Assembly (NCBI RefSeq): GCF_023897065.1
Contig: NZ_JAMHIV010000022.1
Location: 1-64,000 of the forward strand
Source of the DNA: Crossiella sp. SN42
Lineage (GTDB): Bacteria; Actinomycetota; Actinomycetes; Mycobacteriales; Pseudonocardiaceae
Length of the DNA stretch: 64,000 nucleotides
Reading direction: 5' to 3'
Both the position numbers and the translations under genes were made by a program. The first letter of the stretch is position 1; every line of letters begins with the position of its first letter. Positions 30,294 through 64,000 of the stretch are shown here, piece after piece. Below the pieces are notes generated by a model that did not search any database, had not been told where the DNA came from, and was given only the letters and a program-made list of their open reading frames with translations.

Positions 30294-30951
30294 GTGGGGG
30301 ACCCGATCGAGAAGATCGAGCTGAAGGACGGTACGACGAGGTACCGGTTCGTGATCGACATCGGGCGCGACCCGGCGACCGGCAAGCGTAGGCAGTTGAC
30401 GAAGACCTACGACACCAAGAAGGCAGCCCGCGCCGAGTACGCCAAGGTCAAGCGCCAGACCGACGAGGGGACGTTCGTCGGGCCGGACAAGACCACCGTG
30501 TCGGCATGGCTGGACACCTGGTTGAAGTCCACGACGGTGGGCGTTGAAAAGGCCACCGCCGCCAACTACGCCGACGCCCTGCTGCCGGTGCGCGAGCGGC
30601 TCGGCGAGAAACGGCTCCAGGAGGTCACCGAGGAGGACGCGGACGAGTTGGTGAGCTGGATGCTCACCTCCGGTCGCAAGCGCGGCGGGAAGGTCGGCAG
30701 CGGGCTCAGCGTGCGTTCCGTGCAGCCCACGCTAGGGCGCTTCAGATCATCGCGGAACGTAGCGTCGCGGCGCGGGCTGGTCGTCCGCAACATCGCTTGG
30801 TACACGCAGATCCCGCGCGAGGCGCGGCGCAAGGCGGCGGCTGCGGCGGGTGCCCTGGAGTGAGGCGGAGGTGAGACAGTTCCTCGCCTCGATCCGCGAC
30901 CACAGATGGAGCGCCGTCGACCTCGACGCCGGGACGCTGTGGAAGGACTGA
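30294..30951 (+). pseudogene. Tyrosine recombinase (integrase), truncated and frameshifted
   Basis: GTG start. The N-terminal arm-binding domain (RYRFVIDIGRDPATGKRRQL, TYDTKKAARAEYAKVKRQTD) and SAM-like core-binding domain (TVSAWLDTWLKSTT, ANYADALLPVRERLGEKRL) are recognisable. Near 30850 the frame shifts: RVPWSEAEVRQFLASIRDHR continues in another frame, then jumps by deletion to AVDLDAGTLWKD and stops at TGA 30949-30951. The catalytic Arg-His-Arg-Tyr half is missing, so it is dead. It marks the right side of the mobile island. Confidence 0.75.
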
Positions 30952-31449: not shown

Positions 31450-31497
31450 GGCATCTTTGGGGTAGATGCCGGACGAGGCATCTCGGGGGTAGATGCC
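31450..31497. repeat. Tandem pair of inverted repeats upstream of the LAL regulator (candidate operator)
   Basis: GGCATCT-N7-AGATGCC occurs twice, at 31450-31470 and 31477-31497, 27 bp apart start to start. The loops are TTGGGGT and CGGGGGT, so each unit also contains a G-rich core (GGGGTAG). It lies 65 bp before the preferred GTG start of the regulator, a position suited to autoregulation. The 8-bp core TGGGGTAG recurs inverted at 34492-34499, ahead of the biosynthetic operon. Confidence 0.55.
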
Positions 31498-31561
31498 GGG
31501 ATTCCCGTGCAGAAGATCCTTTCCGGATTTCTGTCCGGATGAGATCACCCGGGGGGGACAC

Positions 31562-34715: not shown

Positions 34716-35579
34716 ATGGCGATGCCGACGGTGGGGATTGTCGGAGCCGGGGTGATGGGCAAGGACGTGGCCATCACCTGCGCCGCTTACGGGTACGACG
34801 TGGTGCTCTGCGATCACGACCCCGGGGTCCTGGCCTCGGCGGCCCGCGACATCCGAACCCTCGTGCGGCGCTACCGGCTCATGGCACCGGACGAGCCTTG
34901 CTGGAACGACCCGGGGATTCCCGGTCGCATCCGGATCGGCGAGGACCTGGCCGTGCTCGCCGGCGCCGATTGGATCGTCGAGAACGTCGTCGAGGACGTC
35001 GCTGTCAAGGAGCAGGTACACCGCGAACTGCGCGAGGTGGGTGGGGCGGGTTCCCGGATCGCGGTGAACACCAGTTGCGTCTCGATCACGAGGATCGCCG
35101 CCCTCGCCGCGCGGCCCGAGGAGGTGATCGGCATGCACTTCATGAATCCGGTCCCCCTCATCAAGTGCGTGGAGCTGGTGCGTGGACACCACACCTCCGA
35201 TGAGACGACGAAGCAGGCTGAGGCCTTCGTGAGCGTGCTGGGCAAGCGGCCGGTCGTCGTGCGCGACATGCCGGGATTCGTCTCCAACCGGCTGTCCCAC
35301 CTGTTCATGAACGAGGCGGCGTTCCTCGTCCAGGAGGGGGTCGCCGAACCTGAACAGATCGACGCGATATTCACCCTCGGCTACGGCCACAAGATGGGTC
35401 CCCTGGCCACCGCGGATCTCATCGGTCTGAACACCGTCGTCGACTCGTTGCAGGTGCTCTACGACGACATGCAGGACCCGAAGTTCCGTTGCTGCCCATT
35501 GTTGAAAAGGATGGTGGCCGCCGGACTGGTCGGCCGCAAGAGCGGCCAGGGATTCTATACCTACACCGCTTCTCGATGA
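34716..35579 (+). CDS. 3-hydroxyacyl-CoA dehydrogenase of the hydroxymalonyl-ACP pathway
   Basis: 287 residues. NAD site VGIVGAGVMGKDVAITCAAYG, catalytic region INTSCVSI-like (VNTSCVSITRIAALAARPEE), GMHFMNPVPLIKCVELVRG and C-terminal VRDMPGFVSNRLSHLFMNEA are all in place. In methoxymalonyl- and hydroxymalonyl-ACP pathways this enzyme oxidises the C3 alcohol of glyceryl-ACP. It is first in a run with an FkbH-like protein, ACP and acyl-CoA dehydrogenase, which supports that assignment over fatty-acid degradation. Start: ATG 34716, with GTG 34713 and ATG 34722 also possible. Confidence 0.85.
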   Translation: MAMPTVGIVGAGVMGKDVAITCAAYGYDVVLCDHDPGVLASAARDIRTLVRRYRLMAPDEPCWNDPGIPGRIRIGEDLAVLAGADWIVENVVEDVAVKEQVHRELREVGGAGSRIAVNTSCVSITRIAALAARPEEVIGMHFMNPVPLIKCVELVRGHHTSDETTKQAEAFVSVLGKRPVVVRDMPGFVSNRLSHLFMNEAAFLVQEGVAEPEQIDAIFTLGYGHKMGPLATADLIGLNTVVDSLQVLYDDMQDPKFRCCPLLKRMVAAGLVGRKSGQGFYTYTASR

Positions 35580-35622
35580 CCGTGAAAAGTACCTGACGGG
35601 TCGGAGCAGGAAATTGGAACGG

Positions 35623-36648
35623 ATGAAGATGGCAAAGTGTGTCGTATGGGATCTCGACGACACGCTCTGGCGAGGGACGCTCTCGGCGGGGGACGACGTC
35701 GTTGTTGAACCACAGGTCATCAAGATCGTCAGAACTCTCGACGCGCGCGGGATCCTGCAGTCCATCGCGAGCAAGAACAATCACGACGACGCCATGCAGA
35801 AGCTCGACGAGTTCGGCATCGTCGAGTATTTCCTCCATCCACAGATCAACTGGAACAGCAAGTCCAGTTCCATCACCGTGCTGCAGGAAAAGCTGAACAT
35901 CGGGCTGGACACCTTGGTCTTCGTTGACGACCAGGAGTTCGAACGTGATGAAGTCGCCTTCGTCCACCCTGACGTCGAGACGATCGACGCCGCGGACCGC
36001 CTCTCGCTCGTGACGCTGCCCCGGTTGTCCCCGGCTCACGTCACCGAGGACGCACGGCGTCGGCGGCTGATGTACCAGCAGGGCGAGCAACGCGACCGAT
36101 CCGAACTCGCGTTCCAGGGACCCCGGGACGAATTCCTGCGCAGCCTCGGCATGATCCTCACCATCTCCCAGGCAGGCGGGGACGACCTGCTGCGGCTGGA
36201 GGAACTGATCCAGCGGACCAGTCAGCTCAACTCGACCGGTGTCCACTACTCCCACGACGAACTCGAGAAGCTCCTCGACGACCCGGACCACGACCTGTGG
36301 GTATGCGAGCTGACTGATCGCTACGGCGGTTACGGCAAGATCGGGATGGCACTGGTCGAGAAGGCCGAAGACTGCTGGACGATCGCGCTTCTGCTCATGT
36401 CCTGCCGGACGGTCTCCAAGGGCGTGGGGACCGTACTCCTGCACTTCTTGATCAAAGAGGGCGCAGCGCGGGGCGTCCGCCTCTTCGCCAGGTTCCGGCG
36501 CACTGATCGCAATCGCCAGATGCTGTTCACATACCAGTTGGCGAACTTCCGCGTTGTCTCCCAGGTCGGTGCCGAGCACCTCTTTGAGAACGATCTCACG
36601 ATCGTTCGTGACTATCCCGACCACGTAAGGGTGAACGTCGATGCATGA
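35623..36648 (+). CDS. FkbH-like HAD-family glyceryl-S-ACP synthase
   Basis: 341 residues from ATG 35623 (TTG 35614 and ATG 35629 are alternatives). HAD motif I is VVWDLDDTLW (Asp10, Asp12), with IASKNNHDDAMQKLDEFGI and FVDDQEFERDEV as later HAD motifs. A C-terminal GNAT-like half contains YGGYGKIGMALVEK and LLMSCRTVSKGVGTVLLHFL. Family members take 1,3-bisphosphoglycerate, remove phosphate and load the glyceryl group on an ACP. The stop overlaps the ACP start by 8 bp. Confidence 0.9.
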   Translation: MKMAKCVVWDLDDTLWRGTLSAGDDVVVEPQVIKIVRTLDARGILQSIASKNNHDDAMQKLDEFGIVEYFLHPQINWNSKSSSITVLQEKLNIGLDTLVFVDDQEFERDEVAFVHPDVETIDAADRLSLVTLPRLSPAHVTEDARRRRLMYQQGEQRDRSELAFQGPRDEFLRSLGMILTISQAGGDDLLRLEELIQRTSQLNSTGVHYSHDELEKLLDDPDHDLWVCELTDRYGGYGKIGMALVEKAEDCWTIALLLMSCRTVSKGVGTVLLHFLIKEGAARGVRLFARFRRTDRNRQMLFTYQLANFRVVSQVGAEHLFENDLTIVRDYPDHVRVNVDA

Positions 36649-36934
36649 CAGCGGATCTTCAGTCGATGCGGCCGGCGGCATGGACGTCCGCGACAGCATT
36701 CGTGAGTTCGTCAGGGCCAACATCACCGCGCTGGGCGACACCGAACTGAGCGACGACGACCACATCTTCGACAAGGGGTTCGTCACCTCCATTTTCGCCA
36801 TGCAACTGCTGGCTCACATCGAGGGCGCTTTCGGTGTCGAGGTCCCGGACAACTACCTCAACCTCCGCAACTTCAGCTCGGTCGAGCGGATGGCGCGGAT
36901 GGTGGACGAACTGAGGGCAGCGCGCCGTGGCTGA
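36641..36934 (+). CDS. Free-standing acyl carrier protein for glyceryl/hydroxymalonyl
   Basis: 97 residues with a single ACP domain: IREFVRANITALGDTELSDD, then FDKGFVTSIFAMQLLAHIEG. The phosphopantetheine Ser is Ser50, in the variant context KGFVTS rather than LGxDS, as usual for the glyceryl-ACP carriers of these pathways. Overlaps both neighbours by 8 bp, so FkbH-like protein, ACP and dehydrogenase are cotranslated. A second in-frame ATG at residue 14 is possible. Confidence 0.88.
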   Translation: MHDSGSSVDAAGGMDVRDSIREFVRANITALGDTELSDDDHIFDKGFVTSIFAMQLLAHIEGAFGVEVPDNYLNLRNFSSVERMARMVDELRAARRG

Positions 36935-38063
36935 CGGTTCCCCGATTCCGATCATGACGCGGGCCGTGGCCTTCGCCGCCGAACTGGCACCCCGCGCGGC
37001 GGAGTTCGACCGCGCGGAACGCCTCCCGCACGAGGTGATCGAGCAGATGGCGGATTCGGGATTCCTCGGTGCGACGGTGCCGGTCGAGTGGGGGGGCCTT
37101 GGCCTGACCCCGCTCGAGTATGGCGAACTCACCGAGGTGATCGGCAAGGCATGCGCCTCGACCCGTGCTCTGCTGACCGTCCACACGTCACTGGTCGCCG
37201 AGACGCTGGCCGGCCGGGCGTCCTGGCGGATCAAGGAGAAGTACCTGCCCGACCTTGCGAGCGGGCGACGGATCGCGTGCTTCGCGCTGTCGGAGGCCGG
37301 TGCGGGCTCCGATGCGGCGTCGATGTCCACCAGCTACCTGAAGAAGGGCGAGGACTTCGTCCTCAACGGCCGCAAGAAATGGATCTCGTTTGCGGGGATC
37401 GCAGACGTCTTCCTCGTCTTCGCAGCGGACAACGGCGTCGTCAGTGCGTTCCTTGTCGACCGGGAGACGGCCGGTGTCGAGATCCGGCCGATGTCGGGAA
37501 TGCTCGGTAATCGCGCTACGCACATGGCTGAGGTCGTGCTTTCCGACGTGAAGGTCCCGGCCGAGAACCTCGTCTGCGGAATCGGATCCGGATTTGCCTT
37601 CGTCGCCAACACGGCGCTGCTCCTCGGGCGCTACAGCATCGCGTGGGCGGGCGTCGGGATCGCCCAAGCGGCTCTGGAGGAGATGTGCAGCCATGCTGCC
37701 CGGCGCGAACAGTTCGGTTGCAAGATCGGCTCGTTCCAGCTGGTACAGAAGATGATCGCGGACGCCGTCACCGGCGTCTCCGCCGCGCGCGAGCTGTGCA
37801 GGCGGGCCGGTCGGCTGCGCGCCGAACGCAGCCCGGACGCGATCGCGGCGACAAGCATTGCCAAGTACTTCTCCTCGACCGTCGCCGGACGCGTCACGTC
37901 GGACGCGGTCCAGGTGCTCGGCGGAAGTGGGTGTTGGAGCGGTTATCCGGTCGAACGCCTTTTCCGGGAGGCGAAGATTCTGGAAATCATCGAGGGCACC
38001 TCGCAGGTTCAGCAGACGCTGATCGCTGATTTTGGCCTGACCACATTCGCCAGGAAAGGCTAG
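36927..38063 (+). CDS. Acyl-CoA dehydrogenase of the hydroxymalonyl-ACP pathway
   Basis: 378 residues, GTG start. Flavin/substrate signatures are CFALSEAGAGSDAASM and QVLGGSGCWSGYPVERLFRE; the catalytic Glu356 lies in LEIIEGTSQ. It should complete oxidation of the ACP-bound C3 unit to the carboxylate, giving hydroxymalonyl-ACP. Methoxymalonyl clusters add an O-methyltransferase; none is found between 31 and 64 kb, so the unit may stay hydroxylated (or the gene is outside the window). Confidence 0.88.
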   Translation: MADGSPIPIMTRAVAFAAELAPRAAEFDRAERLPHEVIEQMADSGFLGATVPVEWGGLGLTPLEYGELTEVIGKACASTRALLTVHTSLVAETLAGRASWRIKEKYLPDLASGRRIACFALSEAGAGSDAASMSTSYLKKGEDFVLNGRKKWISFAGIADVFLVFAADNGVVSAFLVDRETAGVEIRPMSGMLGNRATHMAEVVLSDVKVPAENLVCGIGSGFAFVANTALLLGRYSIAWAGVGIAQAALEEMCSHAARREQFGCKIGSFQLVQKMIADAVTGVSAARELCRRAGRLRAERSPDAIAATSIAKYFSSTVAGRVTSDAVQVLGGSGCWSGYPVERLFREAKILEIIEGTSQVQQTLIADFGLTTFARKG

Positions 38064-38076
38064 GTCCGGGAGAGTC

Positions 38077-38130
38077 ATGAACAGCTTCGTGCTTCTGATC
38101 GATAGCCGGTACGGGAGGCGGCGCCGATGA
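38077..38130 (+). CDS. Seventeen-residue leader ORF coupled to the first PKS gene
   Basis: MNSFVLLIDSRYGRRRR, from ATG 38077 after GGGAGA, ends at a TGA that overlaps the PKS ATG (ATGA, 38127-38130). The PKS ribosome site (GGGAGGCGG) lies inside it. It ends in four Arg codons. The perfect coupling is the evidence; it could be a translational leader or chance. Confidence 0.35.
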   Translation: MNSFVLLIDSRYGRRRR

Positions 38131-41100
38131 CGGCTCCGTGGATTCTGAGCGCACCGAGCAGCCAGGCCTTACGTGACCACGCGGATCGGCTGCGGCGGCA
38201 GATCGAGGACGGTGTCGCCGACCCGCGCGATGCGACCGGGTCCCTGGCCTCGGCGCGGCGCGCGCCAGCCCACCGGGCCGTCCTGCTCGCGCACGGTGAC
38301 GACTGGCTCGAGCCGCTGACCGCGGTGGCCCAGGGGCGCCCGAGCGCACGGGCGGTGCGCGGCGTCGCCGCGGACGAGGTCCACCCGGTGTTCGTCTTCC
38401 CCGGCCAGGGCACGGTATTTCCGGGCATGGGCGCTGACCTGCTGGACTCCTCTCCAGTGTTCGTCAGGCAGATCAGCGACTGCGCTGAGGCCCTCGCCCC
38501 GCACGTTGACTGGTCACTTGTCGACGTCATGCGCGCCGACGGCCCGGCACCGGAGCTGCACCGGCCAGACGTGGTGGAGCCGATGCTCTTCGCGATCATG
38601 GTCTCGCTGGCCGGCCTGTGGCGCTGGCACGGGGTCGAGCCGGGTGCAGTGGCCGGCTTCAGTCTCGGTGAGATCGCGGCGGCGTACGTGGCCGGTGCGC
38701 TACCCCTCGATGAGGCCGCGCGTATCGCCGTGCTGTGGAGCCGGGCGCACGTGCCGCTGGTGGGCCAGGGCACCATGGCGATGGTCGGTCTGACCGTCGC
38801 CGAGGCCAAGGACCGCTTCGACGCCCGCGGCGCCGACCCTTGCGACGCCGTCGACATCGCCGGGGTGTTCGCGCCTCGGTCGGTGGTGATCGCCGGAGCC
38901 GGCCCGGTCATCGCCCGCGTTGTCGAGGACCTGCGCGATGAGGGGACCTACGCCCAGAAGCTGTCCGTCGACTTCCCCGCGCACTCGCCGCAGGTGGAGC
39001 AGCAGCGCGAGGCTCTGCTCGCTTCCCTGGGCCGGATCGTCCCGCGCTCGACGGAACTCCCCTTCTATTCCAGCACCACCGGCGGGCGGCTGGACACCGG
39101 CGAGTTGGACGCCGAGTACTGGTACCGCAACCTCCGCAGCCCGGTGATGTTCGAGCAGGCGGCCCAGGCCGCGCTCGCCGACGGCCACCGGGCGCTGGTC
39201 GAGCTCAGCGTGCACCCGGTGCTGATCGGCCCGATGCGCGAGATCGTGACCGCCACCGGCGGTGACGTGCCGGTGATCGGCACGCTGCGCCGCGACCAGC
39301 AGGGTCCGGCCCGCGTCGTCTCCTCGCTGGCGGAGGCATGGGTGCACGGCGTGCCGGTCGACTGGGAACGTGCTCTGCCGGAACCCGGTCACGGCACCGA
39401 CCCGCCCGCGCCCGTCGATCCAGTGGTCCCGGGTTCCGGTGACCTGGTCGAGGCGATTGCCTCCTGCATCCTCAACGAGCTGGAGAACGCTTCGCCCGGC
39501 GGCGCCTCAGACCCGGCCCTCCTCGGCGCGAACCTGTTCGACCTCGGCCTCGACTCGGTGCAACTGGTCTCTCTGCAGGCCAGGCTTGAGCGTCGGCTGG
39601 GAGTCCGGCTGGAGAGCACCTGCATCATCGACCATCCCGAGCCGGCCGCGCTGGTCGAGGAGATCCGGCGGACGCTCACCGCCCGCAACGGCGCGCAGAC
39701 GGCCCCACCCCGTGCGGTCGCAGCCGCGTCCCCGACCTCGCCGTCCGGGCCGATCGCGGTGATCGGGATGGCGCTACGACTGCCCGGTGGCATCGGAACC
39801 CGGCAGCAACTCTGGGAGGCACTGAGCGAGCAGATCGACGTCGTGGAGCCGGTTCCGGACGGCAGGTGGGCGCACAGCCCGCTCGACACCACCGAGGTGA
39901 CGACCACCCGAGGCGGCTACCTGCGCGGCATCGACCTGTTCGACCCGACCTTCTTCGCCATCTCGCCGAGCGAGGCCGAGTTGATGGACCCGCAGCAGCG
40001 GCTGCTCCTGGAGCTGACCTGGGAGGCGTTCGAGGATGCCGGCATCGACCCGTACACCGCAGGCGCGGCCGGCCGAGTCGGGACGTTCGTCGGGATCTAC
40101 AACAACGACTACCGCCAGGTCGGGCAGAACCTCGGGTACTCCCACGAGGCGTACACCTACACCGGCAACATGGCGAACGCGGCCGCCGGACGGATCTCCT
40201 ACACCTTCGGTTTCGAGGGTCCCAGCATGGCGATCGACACCGCCTGCTCGTCCTCTCTCTACGCCCTGCACATGGGTAGCCGGGAGCTGAAGCACGGCGG
40301 ATGTGACCTGGTCGTCGCCGCAGGGGTGAACCTGATTCTCAGCCCCGAGGGGCACCTGTCGTGGTCGCGACTGGGCGCGCTGTCGCCGTCGGGCCGGTGC
40401 CGCAGCTTCGACGACGGCGCAGACGGCTACATCCGGAGCGAAGGCGGTGTCGTCGTTCTCCTCAAACGCCTGGCCGACGCCGAACACGACGGCGACGACG
40501 TCCTCGCCGTGCTGCGCGGTTCGGCGGTCAGCCACAACGGCCGCAGTGGCGGCTTCACCGTCCCCAGCGGTATCGCCCAGAGCCGGGTGATCGAGGAGGC
40601 GATGGCCGAGGCCGGTGTCGGGATCGAGGACGTCTCCTACGTCGAGGCCCACGGTTCCGGGACGCCGATCGGCGATCCGCAGGAGATCAACGCCCTGGCC
40701 CGGGTCTTCACCGGTCGCACGACCAAGGTCGGCCTCGGCAGCGTCAAGTCCAACCTGGGGCACCTGGAGTCGGCCGCCGGCATGGCGGCGCTCTGCAAGG
40801 TCGTTGTCTCCCTCCAGAACGAGCGCCTGCCGGCCACGTTGCACTTCCGCAGCGGCAACCACCTCGTCGACTGGGACCGCGTCCCCGTCGAGGTGGTCGC
40901 CGAGGAGATCCCATGGGAGCCTTCGGGCGGGCGACGCCGGGCGGGAATCAGCTCCTTCGGGATCAGCGGGACCAATGCCCACATCGTCGTCGAGGAGTAC
41001 AAGCACCGGGCGGAACCGCGCCGTGCCGCGCCCGCCCCCGCGATCCCCCGCCTGCTGCCGGTCTCGGCGAACTCCGACGCGGCGCTGCGGACCGCGCTGC

Positions 41101-44100
41101 GCGACCTTGCCGACTGGAGCGCCGGCACCACGGCCGATCTCGATGACATCGCGCACACCCTGGGCAGGCGACGCGGCCTCAAGCACCGCAAAGCCCTGGT
41201 CTGCGCCACGACGGACGACCTGCGGGCCGCCGCCGGCGTGGACCTGAACAAGGACCCGGCCGACGTCGACCACCGCGCGGCGAGCCCGGTGTTCCTCTTC
41301 TCCGGCCAGGGGACGCAGTACCCGGGGATGGCCCGGGAGCTGTATGGCCACGCCGAGGTCTTCCGCCGCGAGTTGGACGAGCTGGACCGCGAGTTCCGTC
41401 GGGCCGCGGACATCTCTCTGCTGAAGGTCATGTTCTCCGAGGAGGCCGGGGAGCACTTCCGGTCACCACTGCACACCCAACCAATGATCTTCGCCGTCGG
41501 GCTGGCGCTCGCCCGGTACTGGAAAAGCTGGGGCATCACCCCCGCCGCGGTCATCGGGCACAGCATCGGCGAGTACGCCGCGGCCTGCTTCGCCGGCGTC
41601 ATGACCCGTGCACAGGCCGTCGACCTGGTCGTGTGCCGGGCGCGGGTCGTCGCGGACTCCTCGGCCGACGGGTCGATGGCGACCCTGCTGTGCTCCCCAG
41701 AGCGGGCACGGGAACTGCTCGACGGCTACCCGGACGTCTCGCTGGCGGCAGTGAATTCCTCGGCCAATGTCACCGTCTCCGGCCCGGCCGAGAGCCTGGC
41801 CGCCGTGCTGAAGGCCGCGCGTGGGCAGCGCGTCTTCGTCGAGCGACTGGACGTGTCACACCCCTTCCACTCGGCGCGGATGGTCTCGGCGGCCGAGCGC
41901 CTGCACGCCCAGATCCACGATCGGCGCTTCGACGACCCGTCAGTCACCTGGATTTCCGCGCAGACCGCCCGGCCAGTGGCAGCAGGGGCCCCGATCGATG
42001 CCGGCCATTGGAGCCGGCACCTGGTCGAGCCCGTCCTGTTCCGGGACGCCGTCGCCTCGGCCGTCGGGTCGGGACTCCGCACCTTCGTGGAGATCGGTGC
42101 CACGGCGACGCTCGGCGGGCTCGTCGCCCAGGAGTTCGGTGACGACGTGGTGGTCCTTCCGAGCCTGCGTAAGGGCAGGTCCGATCTGCGGCAGCTGCTC
42201 GGCACCGCCGGTCGGCTGTGGGAGCTGGGCGCCGAGTTGGACCCCCGCCACCTCGCGGGCGCCGGGCGAGTGGTCCATGACCTCCCGCACACCCCGTTCG
42301 ACAGGCAACGGATCTGGTACCGGGACCGCACCGGAGAAGGCAGCGCGCCCATGAACACCGGAGTCGACGGCCCTCCGGCGAACGGCTCCGTCAACGTCGG
42401 CGCCACCGCGACCGACGCACGCCGGGCGGTTGAGGAGAAGGCGGTCGGGCTGGTCGTCACGCAGGTGCTGAGCGAGGTCACCGGTGTGGCGACCACGGCG
42501 CTGGGCCGCGGCGTCGAACTATTCTCACTCGGTGTCGACTCGCTCATGCTGGTGCAGGTAGGCAAGCGCATCGAGAAGGCGTTCGCACTCGACATCCCGG
42601 TCACGACCTTCTTCCAATCGCTCCACACGGTGGGGCAGCTGATCGACTTCGTCGCCCGGAACCGCCCGGTGGAGGAGAGCTCTCCCGAGCCGAATCTGCC
42701 GGTCGCCCCGTCGGACACTGCCGTAAGCGTTCACCAGGGGAGCACCGCGGCGTCCGGGGCGCCCTCGGGCACCGGCCGAACCGGTCCGCCCGGCTTCGGC
42801 CTGGAGGCGGTGATCCACTCCCAGTTGGCCCTCATGCGGCAACAGCTCCAGGCCCTCTCCAGCACCGCGCCGGCCGACGGGCCCGCGCCGCAACGCCGGC
42901 CGTCGCGGACGGTCCGGAAGGTCGGCTCCTACAACAACAACATCTCGCTGCGCGAGGACCGGCTCACCGCGCGGCAGCAGCGGTTCGTCGACGACTTCGT
43001 CACCCGCTACACCGCCAGGACCGCGGGGTCGAAGAAGTACGCGCGCTCCCACCGGCAGATGCTCGCCGACTGGATCGCCTCGCTCAACTTCGACACGAGC
43101 CTGAAGGAGACGGCCTATCCGCTGGTGTCCGCCCGGTCTCGGGGCGCCGAGTTCTGGGACGTGGACGGCAACGAGTACATCGACACCGGGATTGGGTACG
43201 GCGTCCACTTTTTCGGCCACCAGCCCGACTTCGTCATGCGTGCGGTGCGGGATCAGCTCGAGGCCGGATATGAGCTGGGGCCCCAGAACAAGGTCGCCGG
43301 CGAGGTCGCGGAACTGATCCACGACATGACCGGCGCCGAGCGGGTCACGTTCTGCAACACCGGCACCGAGGCCGTGATGGTGTCCCTGCGGCTGGCCAGG
43401 GCGGTCAGCGGGCGCGACAAGATCGTGCGGTTCACCGACTCCTACCACGGCAGCTCCGATGGCGTCCTGGCCGAGAGCGACGGGACCGGTAGCGTTCCGC
43501 TGACCATAGGCATCCCGCCAGCCATGATCGAGAACACCCTCGTGCTCAGCTACGGCGCCGAGGACTCGCTGGACCGGATCCGGCAGCACGGCGAGGAGTT
43601 GGCCGCCGTGCTGGTCGAGCCGGTGCAGTCACGCAACCCGGGCCTGCAGCCCGCGGGCTTTCTCCGGGAACTCCGGCGGATCTGCACTGAGCATGGGATC
43701 GCGCTGATCTTCGACGAGATGATCGTCGGCTTCCGGGTCGAGCTGGGGGGCGCGCAGTCGTACTTCGGGGTCGAGTCCGATATGTCGCTGTACGGCAAGC
43801 TCGTCGGCGGGGGGATGCCGGTGGGTATCGTCGCCGGCCGGAGCAAGTACCTCGACGCCGTCGACGGCGGGGCCTTCTCCGACGCCGACGACTCCCGGCC
43901 GGCGGTGCCGACGACATTTTTCGCCGGGACGTTCTGCAAACACCCGCTCACCATGGCGGCCTGCCGGGCGGTGCTGACGAACCTGAAGGAGGGCGGTGCG
44001 GAGCGGCTAGCCCGACTGAACCGGTTCACCGACGACTTCGTCCAGCGGGCCAACGACTACTTCGACCGCGACGACGTGCCGATCCGGCTGTCGCACTTCG

Positions 44101-53940: not shown

Positions 53941-53976
53941 CGGAATCGGGTCGTTTCGACAGAATCGGGATGCCAG

Positions 53977-56900: not shown

Positions 56901-58632
56901 GCTGGTGCGCGACACCGTGACCGGCCGCGATCTCATCGAGGCGCTCACCGGGGCGGGGGTACGCGTCGTGCCGTGCTACCTCGGGGCCGGCGTCGGACCG
57001 GGTGGCGAGGTGTTCACTCCCGACGAGGACGGCGTGCGGGTGCTGTGCACCCGGCTGCGCTCGGCGGAGGTCCAGGGCCTGCTGTTCGCCACCGACTTCA
57101 CGGCCGGCTCCGAACTGTCCCACGCGGACCGGCGCGGTGGTGGCGTCGACGCGCTGTTCGAGCTGTACCGCGGCCTGCTGGCGTACCGGGTCAAGCTCCC
57201 CCTCGGGTTGCGGGTGCTCGGCAGCAACGCCTGGCGGGTGGTCGGCGCCGACGCCGTCACGGACCCCTATGCCGCGGCCACCGCGGCGCTGGCCGTGGTG
57301 ATCGGACAGGAACACCTGCCGGTGGGGGTCCTCGACGCGCACCCCGGCGTGCCCGCGGACCTGCTGGCCCACGAGTGCCTGGGCGCTCACGGCGCCTCGC
57401 CGCGCGCGATCCGCGGATCAGAGGTGCACGTGCGGCGCTTGGAGCCCGTCACCGTCGACGAGGAGGACGACACGGAGTCGCCCTATGCCGGGGGCGCCTT
57501 CCTCATCAGCGGTGGTGCGGGCGGCCTGGGCCTGTGCGTCGCCGAGGAGATGGCGGCGCGGGGAGCCGACCGGATCTTCTTGCTCGGCCGCACAGAACTC
57601 GACGAACCGACGAGGCGTCGCGTCGAGCAACTGGGGGTGGCCGACTACATCCGCTGCGACGTGTCGCGGATTGACGATGTCCGGAGCCTGGACGAGCGCC
57701 TGCGGGCCGACGGCGTGCGCCTGTCCGGCATCGTCCACGCGGCGGGTGTCGCCGGTGACGGCTTCCTCTCGACCAAACAGCGGGCGGACTACAACGCCGT
57801 GCTCGCCCCGAAAGTCGACGGGAGCATCGCGCTGCTGGAACTGGCGCGGGCCCACCCGGACCCGTTCGTCGTGTTCTTCTCCTCGATCGCCTCGGTCATG
57901 GGCGGGCACGGCCAGGGCGACTACTGCGCCGCCAACGCCTTCATGGACTCCCTGGCCACCGGCGCACGGGCGGCGGGCGTGCGCGCCCTGTCGGTCAACT
58001 GGCCGACCTGGACCGGGGCTGGAATGGCCGTCGATCGTGGCGTGCCAGCGGACGACACCCCGTTCACGCCAGTGTCGGTGCGGGAGGGACTGGCCTGGCT
58101 GGCGTACTTCCTGCGCCACCCGGCCGACGGCGCCGTCCCGGCCGAGTTCAACCTCCCGGTGTTGCGGCGTGAGTGGAGGACTCTCCCCTTCACCGTCCCG
58201 GCCGAGGTCGCCGACGCTGCCGACACCACGCCGGAGCCCGGTGACGCGATGGCCGATGTCACCCTGACCGGCCTGCCGGACCCGACCCCGACCCAGCGCC
58301 GGATCGCAGCCATCTACGGGGCGGTGCTCGGTCTCGTGGAGATCGATGCCCACGCCGGTTTCCAGGAACTCGGTGGCAACTCGCTGATGACCGCGGACCT
58401 GCTGTCGAAGGTGGAGGTGGCCTATCCGGAGACGGTGGACGTCGCCGACCTGTTCTCCTTCTCCACCGTCGTCGATCTCGCCGCCTACATCGACGAGCGA
58501 CTCGGCCCGGATGCGGACGGGACCGCTGACCCGGGAGCGGACCCGGCACTGCGGGAGGTGCTGGCCGAGATCGGCGACACGGAGCTGCTCTCCGCTTTCG
58601 GCGACACCGGGGTCCATGGGGAGCGACCGTGA
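53977..58632 (+). CDS. Trans-AT PKS module: KS-DH-KR-ACP with atypical DH motif
   Basis: 1551 residues. The N-terminal helix VKAFILEQVAQRRISKGEAK is followed by KS (Cys217 in DTACSAG, EAHGTGT, TTMGHMVG). DH: His702 is present but the motif is HRIDRRAVVPGT, with Arg in place of the conserved Gly; HPAMLDNAV keeps the second acidic residue. KR: ISGGAGGLG near 1175, FSSIASVMGG, GDYCAANAF, intact. ACP Ser1469 is in LGGNSL. No AT. Expected extension, ketoreduction and perhaps dehydration. Its stop overlaps the next gene (GTGA). Confidence 0.9.
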   Translation: MDSVKAFILEQVAQRRISKGEAKALLLELTAAPTTPRDIAIIGLAGRYSAAGSVDEFWDFLRLGRNCVRDFPQARKADMYDILRNPYYSEVILGAIVAESDLDRIYSMSGYLDRIDRFDARFFGIPPLEADYLDPHQRIGLEVAYETLENAGYGGESVRGTRTGVFLGRDQTNYSYYRMFSERSPMQLAGSWEGLVASRISYLMDLTGPCVMIDTACSAGAVSIHQAVQSLQAGECDMALAGGLNLSQAGEVKAAYMTGATMDSVESPDHTVRTFDARADGTVWGEGVGMVMLKPLARALADRDHIRAVIKGSAINNDGMSGGITAPRAQMQEQVILDAWARAGVEPETISYVEAHGTGTALGDPIEAKGLSEAFRRHTSRRQFCGIGSLKTTMGHMVGASGVAAVTKVVKALETGVLPPSANFDVPNPYIDFADSPLYVHDRLAAWDTSATPRRAGVSSFGFVRTNCHLVLEEAPAYRGADQGRPRYCLTVSARTEEALRELLDRYDELLAGSPWSFADICYTSNIGRAHHEHRLLIIAASREQLAESIDRVRARGLGTDERQGVHYGAHVVVSDKKGTFAPGDVTRQTLERLSAEADAVIAAGTAPGEDDVLTGLATRYVRGARVDFARYHAGDARRRVPLPSYPFARTRHWARPLRTRVRSFGAPREHPLLGAETSRSDSRVVFENTLSVERHWVLADHRIDRRAVVPGTTYLEMARAAHAAVAGAGAVRFQDVVFRVPLSVAAGTDATVRTRLERSADGYTFQVVSRQGDDWVPHVEGRVGRAVATEQETIVDVAAVQRAATTVADPVDFEADTGVFQFGPHWNSVRAQWHGDGAALALLRLPLGIDAETTTYGLHPAMLDNAVNVSSQVGGRTYLPYLYKNFVLHRPAPESYYSRVRTVRDGGPGGETITFDVDLIDLDGRVFGQISGYTVKKVDWTRFSVAGPRRFLRVTWEQTAPAELRTNQEAAWAVLVRDTVTGRDLIEALTGAGVRVVPCYLGAGVGPGGEVFTPDEDGVRVLCTRLRSAEVQGLLFATDFTAGSELSHADRRGGGVDALFELYRGLLAYRVKLPLGLRVLGSNAWRVVGADAVTDPYAAATAALAVVIGQEHLPVGVLDAHPGVPADLLAHECLGAHGASPRAIRGSEVHVRRLEPVTVDEEDDTESPYAGGAFLISGGAGGLGLCVAEEMAARGADRIFLLGRTELDEPTRRRVEQLGVADYIRCDVSRIDDVRSLDERLRADGVRLSGIVHAAGVAGDGFLSTKQRADYNAVLAPKVDGSIALLELARAHPDPFVVFFSSIASVMGGHGQGDYCAANAFMDSLATGARAAGVRALSVNWPTWTGAGMAVDRGVPADDTPFTPVSVREGLAWLAYFLRHPADGAVPAEFNLPVLRREWRTLPFTVPAEVADAADTTPEPGDAMADVTLTGLPDPTPTQRRIAAIYGAVLGLVEIDAHAGFQELGGNSLMTADLLSKVEVAYPETVDVADLFSFSTVVDLAAYIDERLGPDADGTADPGADPALREVLAEIGDTELLSAFGDTGVHGERP

Positions 58633-61600
58633 CCGAAGTGGGGGAACAGACGCGCAAGGAACTGCTGAAGTACCTGCTGACGCAGGTGCGGCAGGACCGC
58701 CTCGACGCCGAGCGGGCCAAGGAGTTCATCCGCGCGGTCGGGCGGCCCGGCACCCGGCCTGACCGCGCGGTGGGACCCGGCGGCGACCCGATCGCCGTCG
58801 TGGGGATCGCCTGTCGACTGCCCGGGGCGCCGGACAAGGAGCGGTTCTGGGACAACCTCGTCTCGGGGCGTGAATCCATCGGAGACTTCCCGCAGGCCCG
58901 TCTGGATGACCTCCGCCGGGTCCTGCCGAACCCCGCCGGCCTCGGCCGGGGCGGCTTCCTGGACCGGATCGACCTCTTCGACCCCGAGTACTTCGGTATC
59001 TCGCCGCGGGCGGCCAGGGAACTCGATCCTTACCACCGGCACATGATGGAAGTCCTCGTCGAGACGATGGAGGACGCGGGGTACGCCCGCGGCGACCTGG
59101 ACGGCGCGGCGATCGGTGTCTTCGTCGGCAACGACCACTCGCACCGGCTGAGCATGTCCTACCTGCCGTTCCTGTCAGAGGTGGATTTCTCCGCGTTCGC
59201 GGGCTCGTGGCCGGGCACCCTGGCGAGCCGCATCTCATACCACCTGAACCTGCGGGGCCCCGCGTCGGTCACCGACACTGGCTGCTCGTCCGGGCTGGTG
59301 GCGCTGGACACGGCGATGAAGGCCATCCGCCAGGGTGACTGCGACAGCGCCCTTGTCGCCGGGATCAACCTCTTCCTCTCCCCGGGGAGTCTCGGCAGCG
59401 AGACCGAGTCCGGCGAGTGCCGGGTGCGGGCCTTCGACGCCGGAGCCGACGGCACGGTCTGGAGCGAGGGGGTGGTCGCCGTCCACGTCAAGCCGCTGGC
59501 TCGGGCCACGGCCGACGGAGACCATGTCTACGGCGTCATCGTCGGCAACGCGGTGAACAACGACGGCCGCAGCAACGGCATCACCGCCCCCAACGCTCGG
59601 GCGCAGAAGGACGTGCTCGTCGCGGCATGGAAGCGGGCCGGTATCGAGCCGGAGTCGCTGTCCTACGTCGAGGCGCACGGCACCGGGACGGCCCTCGGCG
59701 ATCCGATCGAGGTCAAGGGCCTCAAGGCCGCCTTTGGTCAGTTCACCAGCCGCAGGCAGTTCTGTGCGCTGGGTTCGGTGAAGTCGAACATCGGGCACAC
59801 GGTCGGGTCCGCGGGCCTGGCGTCATTGGTCAAGACGGTGCTGTGCCTCGACCGCCGGATGCTCCCGCCGTCGTTGCATTTCGAGAGCCCGAACCGCCAC
59901 CTCGACCTCGTCGACTCGCCGGTGTACGTGATCGACCGGCTCACCCCGTGGGAGCCAGGCGTGACGCCCCGGCGGGCGGGGGTGAGCAGCTTCAGCCTGA
60001 CCGGGACCAACACTCACGTGGTGCTCCAGGAGGCGCCGGAGACGCCGCCGCGACCACTGGCCGGGCCGGGAGTCCATCTCTACGTGATCTCCGCGCGGAG
60101 CGAGGAACTCCTCGTGCGGTCCGTGGCTCGTCAGTTGGACTTCCTTGACACCCATCCCGAGTTCCACCTCATCGACATCTGCCACACCATGCGGGTGGGC
60201 CGGGAGCACCAGCCGGTACGGGCCGTCATCCTCTGCCACGATCGCGTCGGCCTGCGGGCGGGCCTGGCGCGCCTGCTCCGCCCACGCGGCGCGCACGAGG
60301 AGCCATTCCCGGACAGGCGCACGGCCGTCCTGCGCGGACGCCCCGAGTCCCCTGCGGCCAATCACGGACCGCAGGACGGAGGCACGACCTTGCCTCCCGG
60401 CGCCGGAACCGGTCGGCGGGCCGACCTCCCCGAGTGGTTCCGGCGCCACCGCGCCGCGGCGACCGCCTATCTCGCCGGTCACGCCCGGCCGTTCGCCGAC
60501 ACCACACCGGTCGGCGGAGCCCGGAGGGTCCCGCTGCCGCCGCAGCCCTTCGACCACGCCCGCTACTGGGACGAGACCGTGCGGGTCGGCCCGCCGTCCC
60601 CGGCCGGGGACGGGCCGGTGCTGCCAGGGGGTACGGACCCGGCACGGTCGGCGCATCCGGACGGCAAGCCCGAGCCGCCCACAACGCGGTCCGTCATCGC
60701 GTCAGTGTGGTCGGAGGTCCTCGGCTACCCCGAGTTCGCCGGATCCGAGAGCTTCTTCGCCCTGGGCGGCGACTCCGTCTCGTCCTTGAAGATCATTCAG
60801 CGGCTGAACGCGGAGTTCGACCTTGAGATCCCCGCGCCACTGCTGCTGAGAAAGCCGGTCTTCGACGACTTCGCCGACGCCGTCGCCGGCGAGTTCGGGC
60901 TCAGCGACGAGCCGGTCCGCGGCCGCCCCGACCGCGGCTCGGACGGCACCGGGACCGAGGACGACGCCACGGAGTACGAGCTCCCGCTCACCGCGTCCCA
61001 GCGGGGCATGCTGTTCTCCGGCGGGCTGGACGGCGACTCGGTCGCGTACAACATCACCGGACTGACGATCGGCGAGGGCACCCTCGACGTGGCCCGTCTT
61101 GAGGCGGGCTTGCACTGTCTCGTGAGCCGCCACGACAGCCTGCGTGCCACGTTCCACCTCGTTGACGGCGAACCGGTGCAGCGCATCCACGCCGAGGTCG
61201 AGGTGGCGGTAGAACGCCTCCACCTCGACGCCCCGGGACCGGGGGAGAGCCACGAAGACCGGGCACGGGAGCAGATGACGCGCTTCGTCCGGCCCTTCCG
61301 GCTCGACGAGGGCCCCCTGTTCCGCGTCGGCTGCTTCGAGTTCGGCGACGGCGTGAGCTGCGTGGCGATCGACTTCCACCACATCGTCACCGATGGCACG
61401 TCGATGGGGATCCTGTTCCGCGACCTCGCCGCGATCGTCGACGGGGCCGAACTCCCTCCACCGGCCCGCGGGTACCGCTCGGCCGTACGAGAGCTGCTCG
61501 AACGCGAGACGGGCGCCGACGTGCTGCGTGGGCGCCACTACTGGTGTTCCCGATTCGCCGAAGGCGTCCCGACGCTGCACCTGGCCACCGACCGGCAGCG

Positions 61601-64000
61601 CACCGATGCCGTGGCCGGTGCAGGCGCGACGCTGTTCACCGAGTTGGACGCGGAGACGCTCAAGGCGGTGAAGGACTACGCGCGCACACGCGACCTGACG
61701 CCCTCCATGGTGCTGCTCGGGGTCTTCCACCAGTTGCTGAGCCGGCTGAGCGGGCAGACCGACCTCGTCGTCGGTACCCCAGTCGCCGGTAGACCGGACC
61801 TCAGCTACGCCGACGTCGTCGGCATGTTCGTCAACACGCTGCCACTGCGGATCTCCGCCGACCCCGCCGACGGGATAGGGCAGTTCTTCTCCGGGCTGCG
61901 GTCGACGGTGCTGGAGGCGTTCGAGCACCAGGCATGCCCGCTGGAACTGGTGATCGAGGACCTGGACCCGCCGCGCGAACCCGGGCGGCGCCCGCTGTTC
62001 GACGTCTGCTTCGTCTACCAGAACACCGACCTGGGTCTGGAACACGCCGGGGAACGGGTGGTCACCTTCGACGACGGCAGTGCCAAGTACGACATCACGC
62101 TCAGCGCCCGCGAGAGCGGCGGGCGGCTGCTGATGGAGTGGGAGTACTCCACCACCCTGTTCCGCGAGGAGACGCTGCTGCTGCACGTCGAGCGCTACGC
62201 GACGCTGCTGCGGTCCGTCCTCGCCGCGGCCGACGCGGATCCGGTGGGCGCGCTCCGGCTGGTGCCGGAGCAGGAGATCGAGCAGATCCGGCGACTCGCC
62301 ACAACTCCGGCCCCGCCGCTGGAGAACTGTGGCGTCGCCCGGCTCTTCGAGCAGCAGGCCATTGCCGGCCCCGACCGGACGGCGTTGATCACCGACTCCG
62401 GGCGGGTCTCCTACGGCGAACTCAACGCGCGGGCGAACCGGCTCGCGCACCGCCTGTCCCGGCTGGGGGTGGTGCCCGGCTCACCGGTCGCGATTCTCGC
62501 GGACCGTTCCGCGGGCCTGGTCGTCGCCGTTCTCGGAGTGCTCAAGGCCGGCTGCCACTACGTCCCGCTCAATGTCGAGTTTCCGGGCGAACGTCTCCGG
62601 CTGGTGCTTCGGGACTCGGGGGCGGAGCTCATCGTGGTGACGGCCGGACGCGCGGAGCAGGCCGGCGAACTCGCCGGCGACCGGCTCCAGGTCCTCGACC
62701 TGTCCACGGGCCCGGAGCCGGCCGCGGACAGTGCTGACCCCGGGCTGCCGAGCAGCAGCGAGGACCCGATCTACATCATGTACACCTCCGGCACCACCGG
62801 GGCGCCGAAGGGCTCGACGATCCGGCAGAAAGGCGTGCTGCGCGTGGTGCGCCAGTCGGTGTTCTACCCCGCCGGGCCCGACGACGTCTTCCTCATGCTG
62901 TCGGACTACTCCTTCGACGGGTCGGTCTACGACATGTTCGCCGCGCTGACGAACGGCGCCGCGCTCGTGGTCCTGGACAAGCCGGACGTGCTGGATCTCG
63001 ACCGGCTCGGCGCGGCGATCGAACGCCACGGTGTCACCAGCTTCTTCATCACCGCCGCCATGTTCCACGCCCTGATCGACAACATCCCGGAACGCCTGGC
63101 CGGCATCCGCAAGTTGATCTTCGGAGGGGAGGCGGCGTCACCGGCCCACGTCGCGCGGGCGTTCCGGCTCCTTGGACCAGGACGGATCGCCAACGGCTAC
63201 GGGCCGACGGAGTCAACGGTCTTCGCCGCGGTGCACACGTTCGACTCCTGCGACGAGCGCGACGCCGTCCCCATCGGGCGACCCATCAACGACACCTCGC
63301 TGTGGGTTGTCGACGAGAACCTGGAACCGCGACCGATCGGCGTCCCCGGCGAACTCTGCATCGGCGGCGCCGGGCTGGCCGACGGCTACCTGAACCAGCC
63401 GGGTCTGACTGCCGAGCGGTTCGTGGAGTCACCCGCTCTGCCCGGGCAGCGGCTGTACCGGACCGGCGACCTGGTCACCCTGCGGAGCAACGGGTTGTTC
63501 TACTACTCCGGCCGCATGGACGACCAGGTCAAGCTACGGGGCTATCGCATCGAGACCGCGGAGATCGTCCATGTCGCGGTGGGGGAGCCGACGGTCCGAT
63601 GGGCGCACGCCGCGGTGCACGAGACCGGCAGGAGCCTGTGCCTCTGGGTCCGTTACGAGGACGGCGCCGAACCCGACGACGCGCGCCTGCGCGCCGCGCT
63701 GGCACGGCGGCTGCCGGGCTACATGGTGCCCGCGTTCATCGTCCGAGTCGATGCCGTCCCGCTTACCGGCAACGGCAAGCTGGACACGGCGGCACTGCCC
63801 GCCCCGGACCTCGCCACCCCCGCGTCAGCGACCAGGCCGGCGACCGACGCCCAGCGACGAATCGCCGTGGCCTGGTCGCTCGCGCTCGGGACGGAGGTGG
63901 CCGACATCGATGCGAACTTCTTCGCCCTCGGCGGAGACTCGATCAAGGCGATCCAGATCGCGGCCGCGCTCAAGAGACATGGCATGGCGATCCGGGCCTC
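58629..64000 (+). CDS. Hybrid trans-AT PKS-NRPS: KS-ACP-C-A-PCP, open at the right edge
   Basis: At least 1790 residues, 3' end beyond the window. GTG start in GTGA overlap. Domains: N-terminal docking helix (RKELLKYLLTQVRQDRLDAE); KS (about 55-485, Cys219 in DTGCSSG, VEAHGTGT, SNIGHTVG); AT-less linker; ACP (Ser716 in LGGDSVSS); condensation (from 784, HHIVTDG 917-923); adenylation (MYTSGTTGAPKG near 1384); PCP (Ser1771 in LGGDSI). No KR or DH lies between KS and ACP, so a beta-keto acyl chain is passed to the C domain. The A pocket residues read D-G-Y-F-I-G-G-V-F, nearest to branched aliphatic (Ile/Val-like) codes; this call is tentative. Confidence 0.88.
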   Translation, partial: MTEVGEQTRKELLKYLLTQVRQDRLDAERAKEFIRAVGRPGTRPDRAVGPGGDPIAVVGIACRLPGAPDKERFWDNLVSGRESIGDFPQARLDDLRRVLPNPAGLGRGGFLDRIDLFDPEYFGISPRAARELDPYHRHMMEVLVETMEDAGYARGDLDGAAIGVFVGNDHSHRLSMSYLPFLSEVDFSAFAGSWPGTLASRISYHLNLRGPASVTDTGCSSGLVALDTAMKAIRQGDCDSALVAGINLFLSPGSLGSETESGECRVRAFDAGADGTVWSEGVVAVHVKPLARATADGDHVYGVIVGNAVNNDGRSNGITAPNARAQKDVLVAAWKRAGIEPESLSYVEAHGTGTALGDPIEVKGLKAAFGQFTSRRQFCALGSVKSNIGHTVGSAGLASLVKTVLCLDRRMLPPSLHFESPNRHLDLVDSPVYVIDRLTPWEPGVTPRRAGVSSFSLTGTNTHVVLQEAPETPPRPLAGPGVHLYVISARSEELLVRSVARQLDFLDTHPEFHLIDICHTMRVGREHQPVRAVILCHDRVGLRAGLARLLRPRGAHEEPFPDRRTAVLRGRPESPAANHGPQDGGTTLPPGAGTGRRADLPEWFRRHRAAATAYLAGHARPFADTTPVGGARRVPLPPQPFDHARYWDETVRVGPPSPAGDGPVLPGGTDPARSAHPDGKPEPPTTRSVIASVWSEVLGYPEFAGSESFFALGGDSVSSLKIIQRLNAEFDLEIPAPLLLRKPVFDDFADAVAGEFGLSDEPVRGRPDRGSDGTGTEDDATEYELPLTASQRGMLFSGGLDGDSVAYNITGLTIGEGTLDVARLEAGLHCLVSRHDSLRATFHLVDGEPVQRIHAEVEVAVERLHLDAPGPGESHEDRAREQMTRFVRPFRLDEGPLFRVGCFEFGDGVSCVAIDFHHIVTDGTSMGILFRDLAAIVDGAELPPPARGYRSAVRELLERETGADVLRGRHYWCSRFAEGVPTLHLATDRQRTDAVAGAGATLFTELDAETLKAVKDYARTRDLTPSMVLLGVFHQLLSRLSGQTDLVVGTPVAGRPDLSYADVVGMFVNTLPLRISADPADGIGQFFSGLRSTVLEAFEHQACPLELVIEDLDPPREPGRRPLFDVCFVYQNTDLGLEHAGERVVTFDDGSAKYDITLSARESGGRLLMEWEYSTTLFREETLLLHVERYATLLRSVLAAADADPVGALRLVPEQEIEQIRRLATTPAPPLENCGVARLFEQQAIAGPDRTALITDSGRVSYGELNARANRLAHRLSRLGVVPGSPVAILADRSAGLVVAVLGVLKAGCHYVPLNVEFPGERLRLVLRDSGAELIVVTAGRAEQAGELAGDRLQVLDLSTGPEPAADSADPGLPSSSEDPIYIMYTSGTTGAPKGSTIRQKGVLRVVRQSVFYPAGPDDVFLMLSDYSFDGSVYDMFAALTNGAALVVLDKPDVLDLDRLGAAIERHGVTSFFITAAMFHALIDNIPERLAGIRKLIFGGEAASPAHVARAFRLLGPGRIANGYGPTESTVFAAVHTFDSCDERDAVPIGRPINDTSLWVVDENLEPRPIGVPGELCIGGAGLADGYLNQPGLTAERFVESPALPGQRLYRTGDLVTLRSNGLFYYSGRMDDQVKLRGYRIETAEIVHVAVGEPTVRWAHAAVHETGRSLCLWVRYEDGAEPDDARLRAALARRLPGYMVPAFIVRVDAVPLTGNGKLDTAALPAPDLATPASATRPATDAQRRIAVAWSLALGTEVADIDANFFALGGDSIKAIQIAAALKRHGMAIRA

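What the first reader, a model, noticed from the sequence alone, without database searches (positions are those of the whole stretch)
34716..64000. Apparently unassigned hybrid assembly line mixing cis-AT and trans-AT modules with an amination step and a hydroxymalonyl supply
Seen: hydroxymalonyl-ACP gene set, then AT-ACP-KS-AT-ACP-AMT-C-A(Gly-like)-PCP, free AT, two AT-less KS-DH-KR-ACP proteins, and KS-ACP-C-A-PCP. Known: AMT domains of this class make beta-amino acyl units, as in mycosubtilin and microcystin systems; hydroxymalonyl-ACP feeds zwittermicin-type lines. Inference: a beta-amino-acyl-glycyl chain is extended twice with reduction, then once without, and joined to an aliphatic amino acid. 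I recall no described actinomycete cluster with this order.
Basis: partly seen in the sequence, partly recalled or inferred. Interest (0 to 1): 0.72.

Follow-up and report, generated by a model that had tools for sequence, protein, structure and literature searches.

The report
Unassigned beta-amino acid assembly line
This is an intact bacterial gene cluster for making an unknown small molecule, of a rare type shared with some other soil bacteria, and it may build an unusual hydroxy-amino acid by an uncommon route.

Summary
In detail: a hydroxymalonyl-ACP gene set, AT-ACP-KS-AT-ACP-AMT-C-A(Gly)-PCP, a free AT, two AT-less KS-DH-KR-ACP proteins and KS-ACP-C-A-PCP. The contig continues and the line is open to its end: an epimerase, C-A-PCP, KS-AT-(no recognised KR)-ACP-C, thioesterase, methyltransferase, exporter. 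It is not unique: eleven other genomes carry it, nine completely, including two Paenibacillaceae. Eight literature searches showed no product. The loader is a starter-type AT in six complete clusters and a fatty-acyl-AMP ligase in four, so the chain starts on a monocarboxylic acid. The AT before the aminotransferase has an unusual F-x-E carrier site in 10 of 10 readable members and in 0 of 35 other AMT-linked ATs; the other cis-AT is dead in two members and malonyl-like in two. So I infer, without proof, that hydroxymalonyl enters there and gives a 2-hydroxy-3-amino acyl unit, not made by an oxygenase as in puwainaphycin. Against this, the last module's AT is the one that resembles the hydroxymalonyl AT ZmaA. 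New variant of a known kind; product unknown.

The parts
34716..35579 (+). 3-hydroxyacyl-CoA dehydrogenase-like gene, hydroxymalonyl-ACP set
   Evidence: NCBIfam, below curated cut-offs; orthologues 66-71% identical in seven actinomycete clusters, 49% in the Microbacterium bin, 59% and 61% in Paenibacillaceae
35614..36648 (+). FkbH-type protein
   Evidence: TIGR01686, 264 bits, cut-off 147
36641..36934 (+). stand-alone ACP, 97 aa
   Evidence: read from sequence; orthologue at the same place in 9 of 9 complete relatives, 47-67%
36927..38063 (+). acyl-CoA dehydrogenase-like oxidase of the hydroxymalonyl set
38127..48140 (+). protein A: AT1-ACP-KS-AT2-ACP-AMT-C-A(Gly)-PCP
   Evidence: Pfam; Gly code
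38367..39386 (+). AT1, starter-type AT (Trp at the extender-Arg site, PAHS motif)
   Evidence: Trp in 6 of 6 AT1; same Trp and PAHS in the AVES1 loading AT 4rl1, which ranks fourth among PDB matches behind extender ATs
41247..42326 (+). AT2, proposed entry point of hydroxymalonyl (F-x-E at the RXR site)
   Evidence: rule from PMC4207774 passages
42912..44306 (+). AMT, class III PLP aminotransferase
   Evidence: PF00202, 159 bits; motif Lys kept in 10 of 10 relatives: GKLVGGG in own and 6, GKL[IL]GGG in 2, GKLVAGG in 2
48137..49378 (+). free FabD-like AT, taken to serve the AT-less modules
   Evidence: first RXR residue R or K in own and 10 of 10 relatives
49375..53940 (+). protein B: KS-DH-KR-ACP, no AT
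   Evidence: active-site motifs in 10 of 10 relatives
53977..58632 (+). protein C: KS-DH-KR-ACP, no AT
   Evidence: KS motifs in 10 of 10 relatives, DH and KR in the 9 that could be read
58629..64000 (+). protein D: KS-ACP-C-A-PCP-E, continues to contig position 65450; then on the same contig E (C-A-PCP, about 65543-68830), F (KS-AT-about 400 residues without a recognised domain-ACP-C, 68802-74753), type II thioesterase 74794-75528, methyltransferase 75580-76350, ABC exporter 77213-78998

Best explanation
It is an open, apparently complete hybrid NRPS/PKS line for a peptide-polyketide that starts with a beta-amino acid. AT1 loads a monocarboxylic acyl starter (a fatty-acyl-AMP ligase does so in sister clusters). 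AT2 takes hydroxymalonyl from the dedicated ACP, the KS condenses it and the AMT turns the ketone into an amine, giving a 2-hydroxy-3-amino acyl unit. The C domain joins glycine. The free AT feeds malonyl to B, C and D: two reduced and dehydrated extensions give a diene, one stays a ketone. D adds and epimerises an amino acid, E adds another (valine-like code in seven of ten relatives read; unassigned here), F adds a last unreduced ketide, and the terminal C domain releases the chain, most simply by closing on the beta-amine (about a 21-membered lactam by my atom count). Shown by sequence: domain order, open frames, motifs, conservation. Inferred: substrates, hydroxymalonyl entry at AT2, release chemistry.
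For: Domain order. Same order in nine other complete clusters. AT1: Trp at the extender-Arg site in 6 of 6, as in the AVES1 loading AT; a ligase instead in 4 of 10 complete clusters (best NCBIfam model 'fatty acyl-AMP ligase' for the three scanned, below its cut-off). AT2: F-x-E in 10 of 10 readable members against 0 of 35 other AMT-linked ATs; the three hydroxymalonyl enzymes occur together in 7 of 80 loci, all members. F's AT has lost its catalytic Ser in A. pegani and S. albida and is malonyl-like (R-T-R, HAFH) in both Paenibacillaceae, yet all four keep the set. Epimerase. Terminal C keeps D-H-x-x-F-D in own, 10 of 10 relatives and G772.
Against: F's AT, not AT2, has the hydroxymalonyl-specific ZmaA AT as its best match among solved structures (238 bits; AT2 against ZmaA 112 bits, its best being CurL at 163). 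F-x-E has an acidic third residue, unlike M-C-M or I-A-I of ZmaA-AT and ZmaF. The ten members are related, so F-x-E may be one inherited, neutral change. AT1's three best PDB matches are extender-type ATs. The terminal C domain matches solved C domains only weakly (best E 1.8e-6). The DH of C lacks Gly in HxxxGxxxxP in own and the nine relatives read, so its dehydration is less sure. No expression or product data.
Confidence: 0.55

Rival explanations
1. Hydroxymalonyl is used by the last module F. The beta-amino acyl unit has no 2-hydroxyl, and the chain ends in an alpha-hydroxy-beta-keto unit before release.
For: F's AT matches ZmaA-AT best of all PDB chains, 1.3e-69, ahead of 5yda at 1.2e-64; its own RXR site is non-basic (A-F-T).
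Against: The catalytic Ser of F's AT is lost in A. pegani (GHDTG) and S. albida (GHGVG plus a deletion that takes the catalytic His), and the site is R-T-R with HAFH in both Paenibacillaceae, while the hydroxymalonyl genes stay. Its top plasmid hits are cyanobacterial type I PKS at 42-43%, so the ZmaA match is not specific.
Confidence: 0.25
2. The free AT carries hydroxymalonyl to an AT-less module, or all units are malonyl and the set serves something else.
For: Free ATs can take ACP-bound units (ZmaF, OzmC; passage in PMC6164871).
Against: The free AT is FabD-like with a basic first RXR residue in own and 10 of 10 relatives; the set sits directly upstream of protein A in all ten complete clusters.
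Confidence: 0.15
3. A question apart from the entry point: release by the terminal C domain gives a small ring (an N-acyl pyrrolinone or tetramate from the last amide) or a linear product, not a macrolactam.
For: The last steps, amino acid then one unreduced ketide, would allow such a ring; a methyltransferase is near.
Against: None decisive. In the iturin family the beta-amino acid is held by two peptide bonds (PMC4219810 passage), so closure on the beta-amine has a precedent.
Confidence: 0.35

Closest known systems
Mycosubtilin/iturin synthetases (MycA type)
   Same: acyl loader, KS, AMT and first NRPS module in one protein, giving a beta-amino acyl-amino acid (PMC4219810 passages; exact domain order recalled)
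   Different: glycine instead of asparagine, hydroxymalonyl supply, trans-AT polyketide middle, terminal C domain
Puwainaphycin synthetase (Puw)
   Same: loader, PKS and AMT giving a 3-amino-2-hydroxy fatty acyl unit (PMC4219810 passages)
   Different: there the 2-hydroxyl is assigned to a monooxygenase domain; here no oxygenase matched in the line and a hydroxymalonyl set is present
Zwittermicin hydroxymalonyl-ACP pathway
   Same: FkbH-type, dehydrogenase, ACP and FAD oxidase set for an ACP-bound extender (PMC4207774 passages; gene roles partly recalled)
   Different: AT2 is not ZmaA-like overall (112 bits); zwittermicin's serine start and aminomalonyl branch (recalled) were not sought here
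Streptogramin A / griseoviridin lines (recalled)
   Same: glycine extended by trans-AT modules to a diene in actinomycetes
   Different: no AMT start; later residues differ; not compared by sequence here

Membership tests
Iturin/mycosubtilin-type beta-amino-acyl starter line | acyl loader + ACP + KS + class III AMT followed directly by a C-A-PCP module in one protein | tested here: met
   fatty-acyl-AMP ligase loader in 4 of 10 complete clusters, AT loader in own
Iturin/mycosubtilin-type beta-amino-acyl starter line | integrated TE closing the peptide (recalled) | tested here: not met
   no integrated TE match; the last protein ends in a C domain
Zwittermicin-type hydroxymalonyl-ACP supply | FkbH, HBDH-like, stand-alone ACP and ACAD-like genes together | tested here: met
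Zwittermicin-type hydroxymalonyl-ACP supply | a PKS AT specific for hydroxymalonyl-ACP | tested here: inconclusive
   AT2 F-x-E site against F's AT resembling ZmaA
trans-AT PKS | AT-less modules plus a free AT | tested here: met
   proteins B, C and the KS-ACP part of D have no AT match; free AT 48137-49378
trans-AT PKS | KS grouping in trans-AT clades | not tested
   no reference KS set used
Puwainaphycin-type 2-hydroxy-3-amino fatty acyl line | monooxygenase domain next to the AMT | tested here: not met
   no oxygenase match in proteins A to F or the neighbours scanned
[quoted passage not shown]
   PMC11204786 part 1 of 3 read against three A domains, Gly first

The most novel reading that the evidence does not exclude
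A 2-hydroxy-3-amino acyl unit is built from a hydroxymalonyl-ACP extender and an in-line aminotransferase, a second route beside the AMT-plus-monooxygenase route of cyanobacteria, in a family spanning Actinomycetota and Paenibacillaceae whose members also show loader exchange, a nested adenylation-domain exchange and decay of one cis-AT.
Probability: 0.5. Interest if true: 0.68.

Novelty: new variant of a known kind. Interest (0 to 1): 0.55.

Why it matters
It points to an unassigned natural-product family with named carriers to test (for example Saccharothrix carnea, Streptomyces lomondensis, Micromonospora rosaria). If AT2 is the hydroxymalonyl AT, polyketide engineering gains a route to 2-hydroxy-3-amino acids without an oxygenase. 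The A. pegani and S. albida clusters seem to preserve intermediate stages of domain exchange.

Tried and rejected
Product guesses dropped: solanimycin (PMC10204066, parts 1 and 2 of 7 read: Dha-rich peptide with one Ser module) and enamidonin/autucedine/olenamidonin (search listing; PMC11204786 part 1 of 3; PMC12843350 passages: Phe-Dpr-Dpr-Gly). The Saccharothrix espanaensis genome paper (PMC3469384, passages and section 9) names hydroxymalonyl-ACP genes in a figure legend without a matching cluster description. Passages of PMC5932044, PMC9581180 and PMC9755354 gave nothing. No paper naming this line was seen in the listings of eight searches; a ninth was on adenylation-domain recombination and its papers were not opened. 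The library holds open-licence PMC papers only; MIBiG was not available.

An early reading, hydroxymalonyl into F because of the ZmaA match, was demoted after the orthologue check. The RXR rule (PMC4207774 passages) does not settle F's AT: its first residue is A, K, D, S, T or R in the ten members where it could be read. The epimerase model TIGR01720 was not among the 25 of 117 NCBIfam rows shown; PDB matches served instead. No second copy of the tRNA-Pro end was found in contig C15 1-121999, so no element boundary is claimed. The ACP query was out of frame and gave no rows; one search repeats it in frame. Structure prediction was not run. Alignment was mis-specified and not used.
Full report
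The window is positions 1-64000 of contig C15 (189,872 bases) of a 9.72 Mb genome. The described genes are all there. The contig goes on past 64 kb and so does the line: D runs to 65450 and ends in an epimerisation domain (motifs HHLAVDVVSW and VNYLGE; PDB matches include the TycA and GrsA E domains; motif kept in 9 of 9 relatives read). E is C-A-PCP; its real start is probably the ATG near 65543 by alignment with G295. F is KS-AT, then about 400 residues with no recognised domain, which I read as a degenerate KR, then ACP and a terminal C-type domain. A thioesterase, a methyltransferase with an NPPL motif and an ABC exporter follow. The frames are open.

The same line occurs elsewhere. A search of 397 genomes of the order, own included, gave two others, G204 and G295. 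A scan of the GTDB species collection found 288 relatives and kept the best 80. Nine of these belong to this family: Saccharothrix carnea, Streptomyces lomondensis, Micromonospora rosaria, S. globisporus, Actinophytocola xinjiangensis, A. pegani, Spirillospora albida, Paenibacillus tyrfis and a Microbacterium metagenome bin. Of 104 genomes of the P. tyrfis family four matched: P. tyrfis, one further member (G772), and two weaker hits (32-33%) not examined. A class-wide draw of 394 gave two hits besides own, not examined and possibly species already counted. So eleven members besides own: nine complete from the hydroxymalonyl set to the terminal C domain (G295, A. pegani, S. carnea, S. lomondensis, A. 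xinjiangensis, S. albida, Microbacterium, P. tyrfis, G772), and M. rosaria and S. globisporus cut by contig ends. The terminal ACP-C part was found in 8 of 8 named genomes searched. G295 is very close to M. rosaria in the tree.

Starter. AT1 has Trp where extender ATs have Arg, in 6 of 6 AT1 domains (own; G295, S. carnea, S. lomondensis, A. xinjiangensis and Microbacterium). The other five AT1 rows landed on other ATs, because those clusters have a ligase or are cut, and were dropped. The AVES1 loading AT shows the same Trp and PAHS in the printed alignment, though it ranks fourth behind extender-type ATs by score. That FabD's Arg 117 holds the carboxylate is in PMC4207774 (passages); that starter ATs replace it by Trp is recalled. 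In A. pegani, S. albida, P. tyrfis and G772 a ligase takes AT1's place; for the three scanned the best NCBIfam model is a fatty acyl-AMP ligase, below its cut-off. So the chain most likely starts on a monocarboxylic acid, as in iturin-type lines. If the tree is rooted on the Paenibacillaceae, the actinomycete ligase clusters lie inside AT1 clusters and the loader changed at least twice.

Where hydroxymalonyl enters. Park et al. (PMC4207774, passages) propose that ATs using ACP-bound extenders have hydrophobic instead of basic residues at an RXR site. There AT2 has F-x-E in 10 of 10 readable members (own, eight, G772; the M. rosaria and S. globisporus rows fell on other ATs and were dropped). 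Of the 42 AMT-linked ATs that could be read in the 80 loci, 7 are members and have it, and 0 of the other 35 do. The three enzymes of the hydroxymalonyl set occur together in 7 of 80 loci within the fetched flanks, all members; the two member loci without them are cut upstream. F's AT points the other way: its best PDB match is ZmaA-AT. But its top plasmid matches are cyanobacterial type I PKS at 42-43%. In A. pegani its catalytic Ser is Asp; in S. albida it is Gly, with a stretch including the catalytic His missing; in both Paenibacillaceae the site is R-T-R with HAFH. All four keep the hydroxymalonyl set. I therefore favour AT2 (0.55) and keep F as the main rival (0.25). The members are related by descent, so these counts are not independent.

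Building blocks. A1 reads as glycine in own and 11 relatives. D reads DGY[FT][ILV]G[GA]VFK, or DGIFMGGVFK in both Paenibacillaceae; I could not match it to a listed code (none in the main text of PMC12283262, find). E reads exactly DAFWIGGTFK in G295 and P. tyrfis, one change away in S. carnea, M. rosaria, Microbacterium and G772, and two in A. xinjiangensis (valine code, recalled): seven of ten relatives. S. lomondensis reads DAFWLGFVFK and own DGLTCVGVFK, both unassigned. In A. pegani and S. albida, E carries a nested second A domain with code DFWNIGMVHK, which PMC12283262 lists under threonine-type substrates.

Locus. Of five genomes of the genus, own included, only own gave a match; one of the others is called the same species, G864. 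Own and G864 are collinear (93-96%) with gaps up to window 22954, and again (94%) from C15:91882 at a tRNA-Pro. Between these points own has 68.9 kb and G864 36.6 kb with no match between them at 1e-10; the G864 stretch holds a second 43-base copy of the tRNA end. The cluster is thus strain-variable. The region also holds a helicase-like gene and a short integrase-like gene at 30294-30863.

Judgement. The finding is real and its frames are open; it belongs to a rare orphan family and is a new variant of known assembly-line kinds. Its most interesting part, a hydroxymalonyl route to a 2-hydroxy-3-amino acid, is inferred from motifs and elimination and needs a loading assay.

Noticed in passing
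L023 12912-18056 minus (A. pegani) and L117/L122 (S. albida), E-module protein: A full A domain with a Thr-type code (74% identical between the two) sits inside the original A domain after about 90 residues, preceded in A. pegani by a 193-residue stretch with weak C-domain likeness; the rest of the old A domain remains behind it and is more divergent (39% identical). It looks like a preserved step of an A-domain exchange.
   Followed up: partly
F protein of A. pegani and S. albida: The cis-AT domain has lost its catalytic Ser in frame (with a large deletion in S. albida) while the rest of the module is kept, a possible snapshot of a cis-AT to trans-AT change.
   Followed up: partly
window 22955 to contig C15:91881: Region not shared with a same-species genome, bordered on the right by tRNA-Pro(ggg); that genome has other DNA there with a second 43-base copy of the tRNA end.
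   Followed up: partly
window 47457-48140: About 227 residues of unknown function at the end of protein A; 38-44% identical in seven of nine named members, not found in the Paenibacillus and Microbacterium loci; no significant match to the line's own C domains.
   Followed up: no
window 63167-63260: ARAGORN reports a tRNA-Arg inside the coding sequence of protein D; probably a false positive.
   Followed up: no
window 31493-34213: Large LuxR-type regulator with AAA domain just upstream; no blastp match at 1e-10 among the ORFs of the G295 and G204 regions.
   Followed up: no
L118 548-7681 minus (P. tyrfis F protein): A methyltransferase domain lies between the AT and the ACP, while own has a separate methyltransferase gene whose relative is fused to F in A. 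pegani and lies upstream in G295.
   Followed up: no
genome G000: 71 matches to the ketosynthase N-terminal family in one genome, many on contigs C12 and C45.
   Followed up: no
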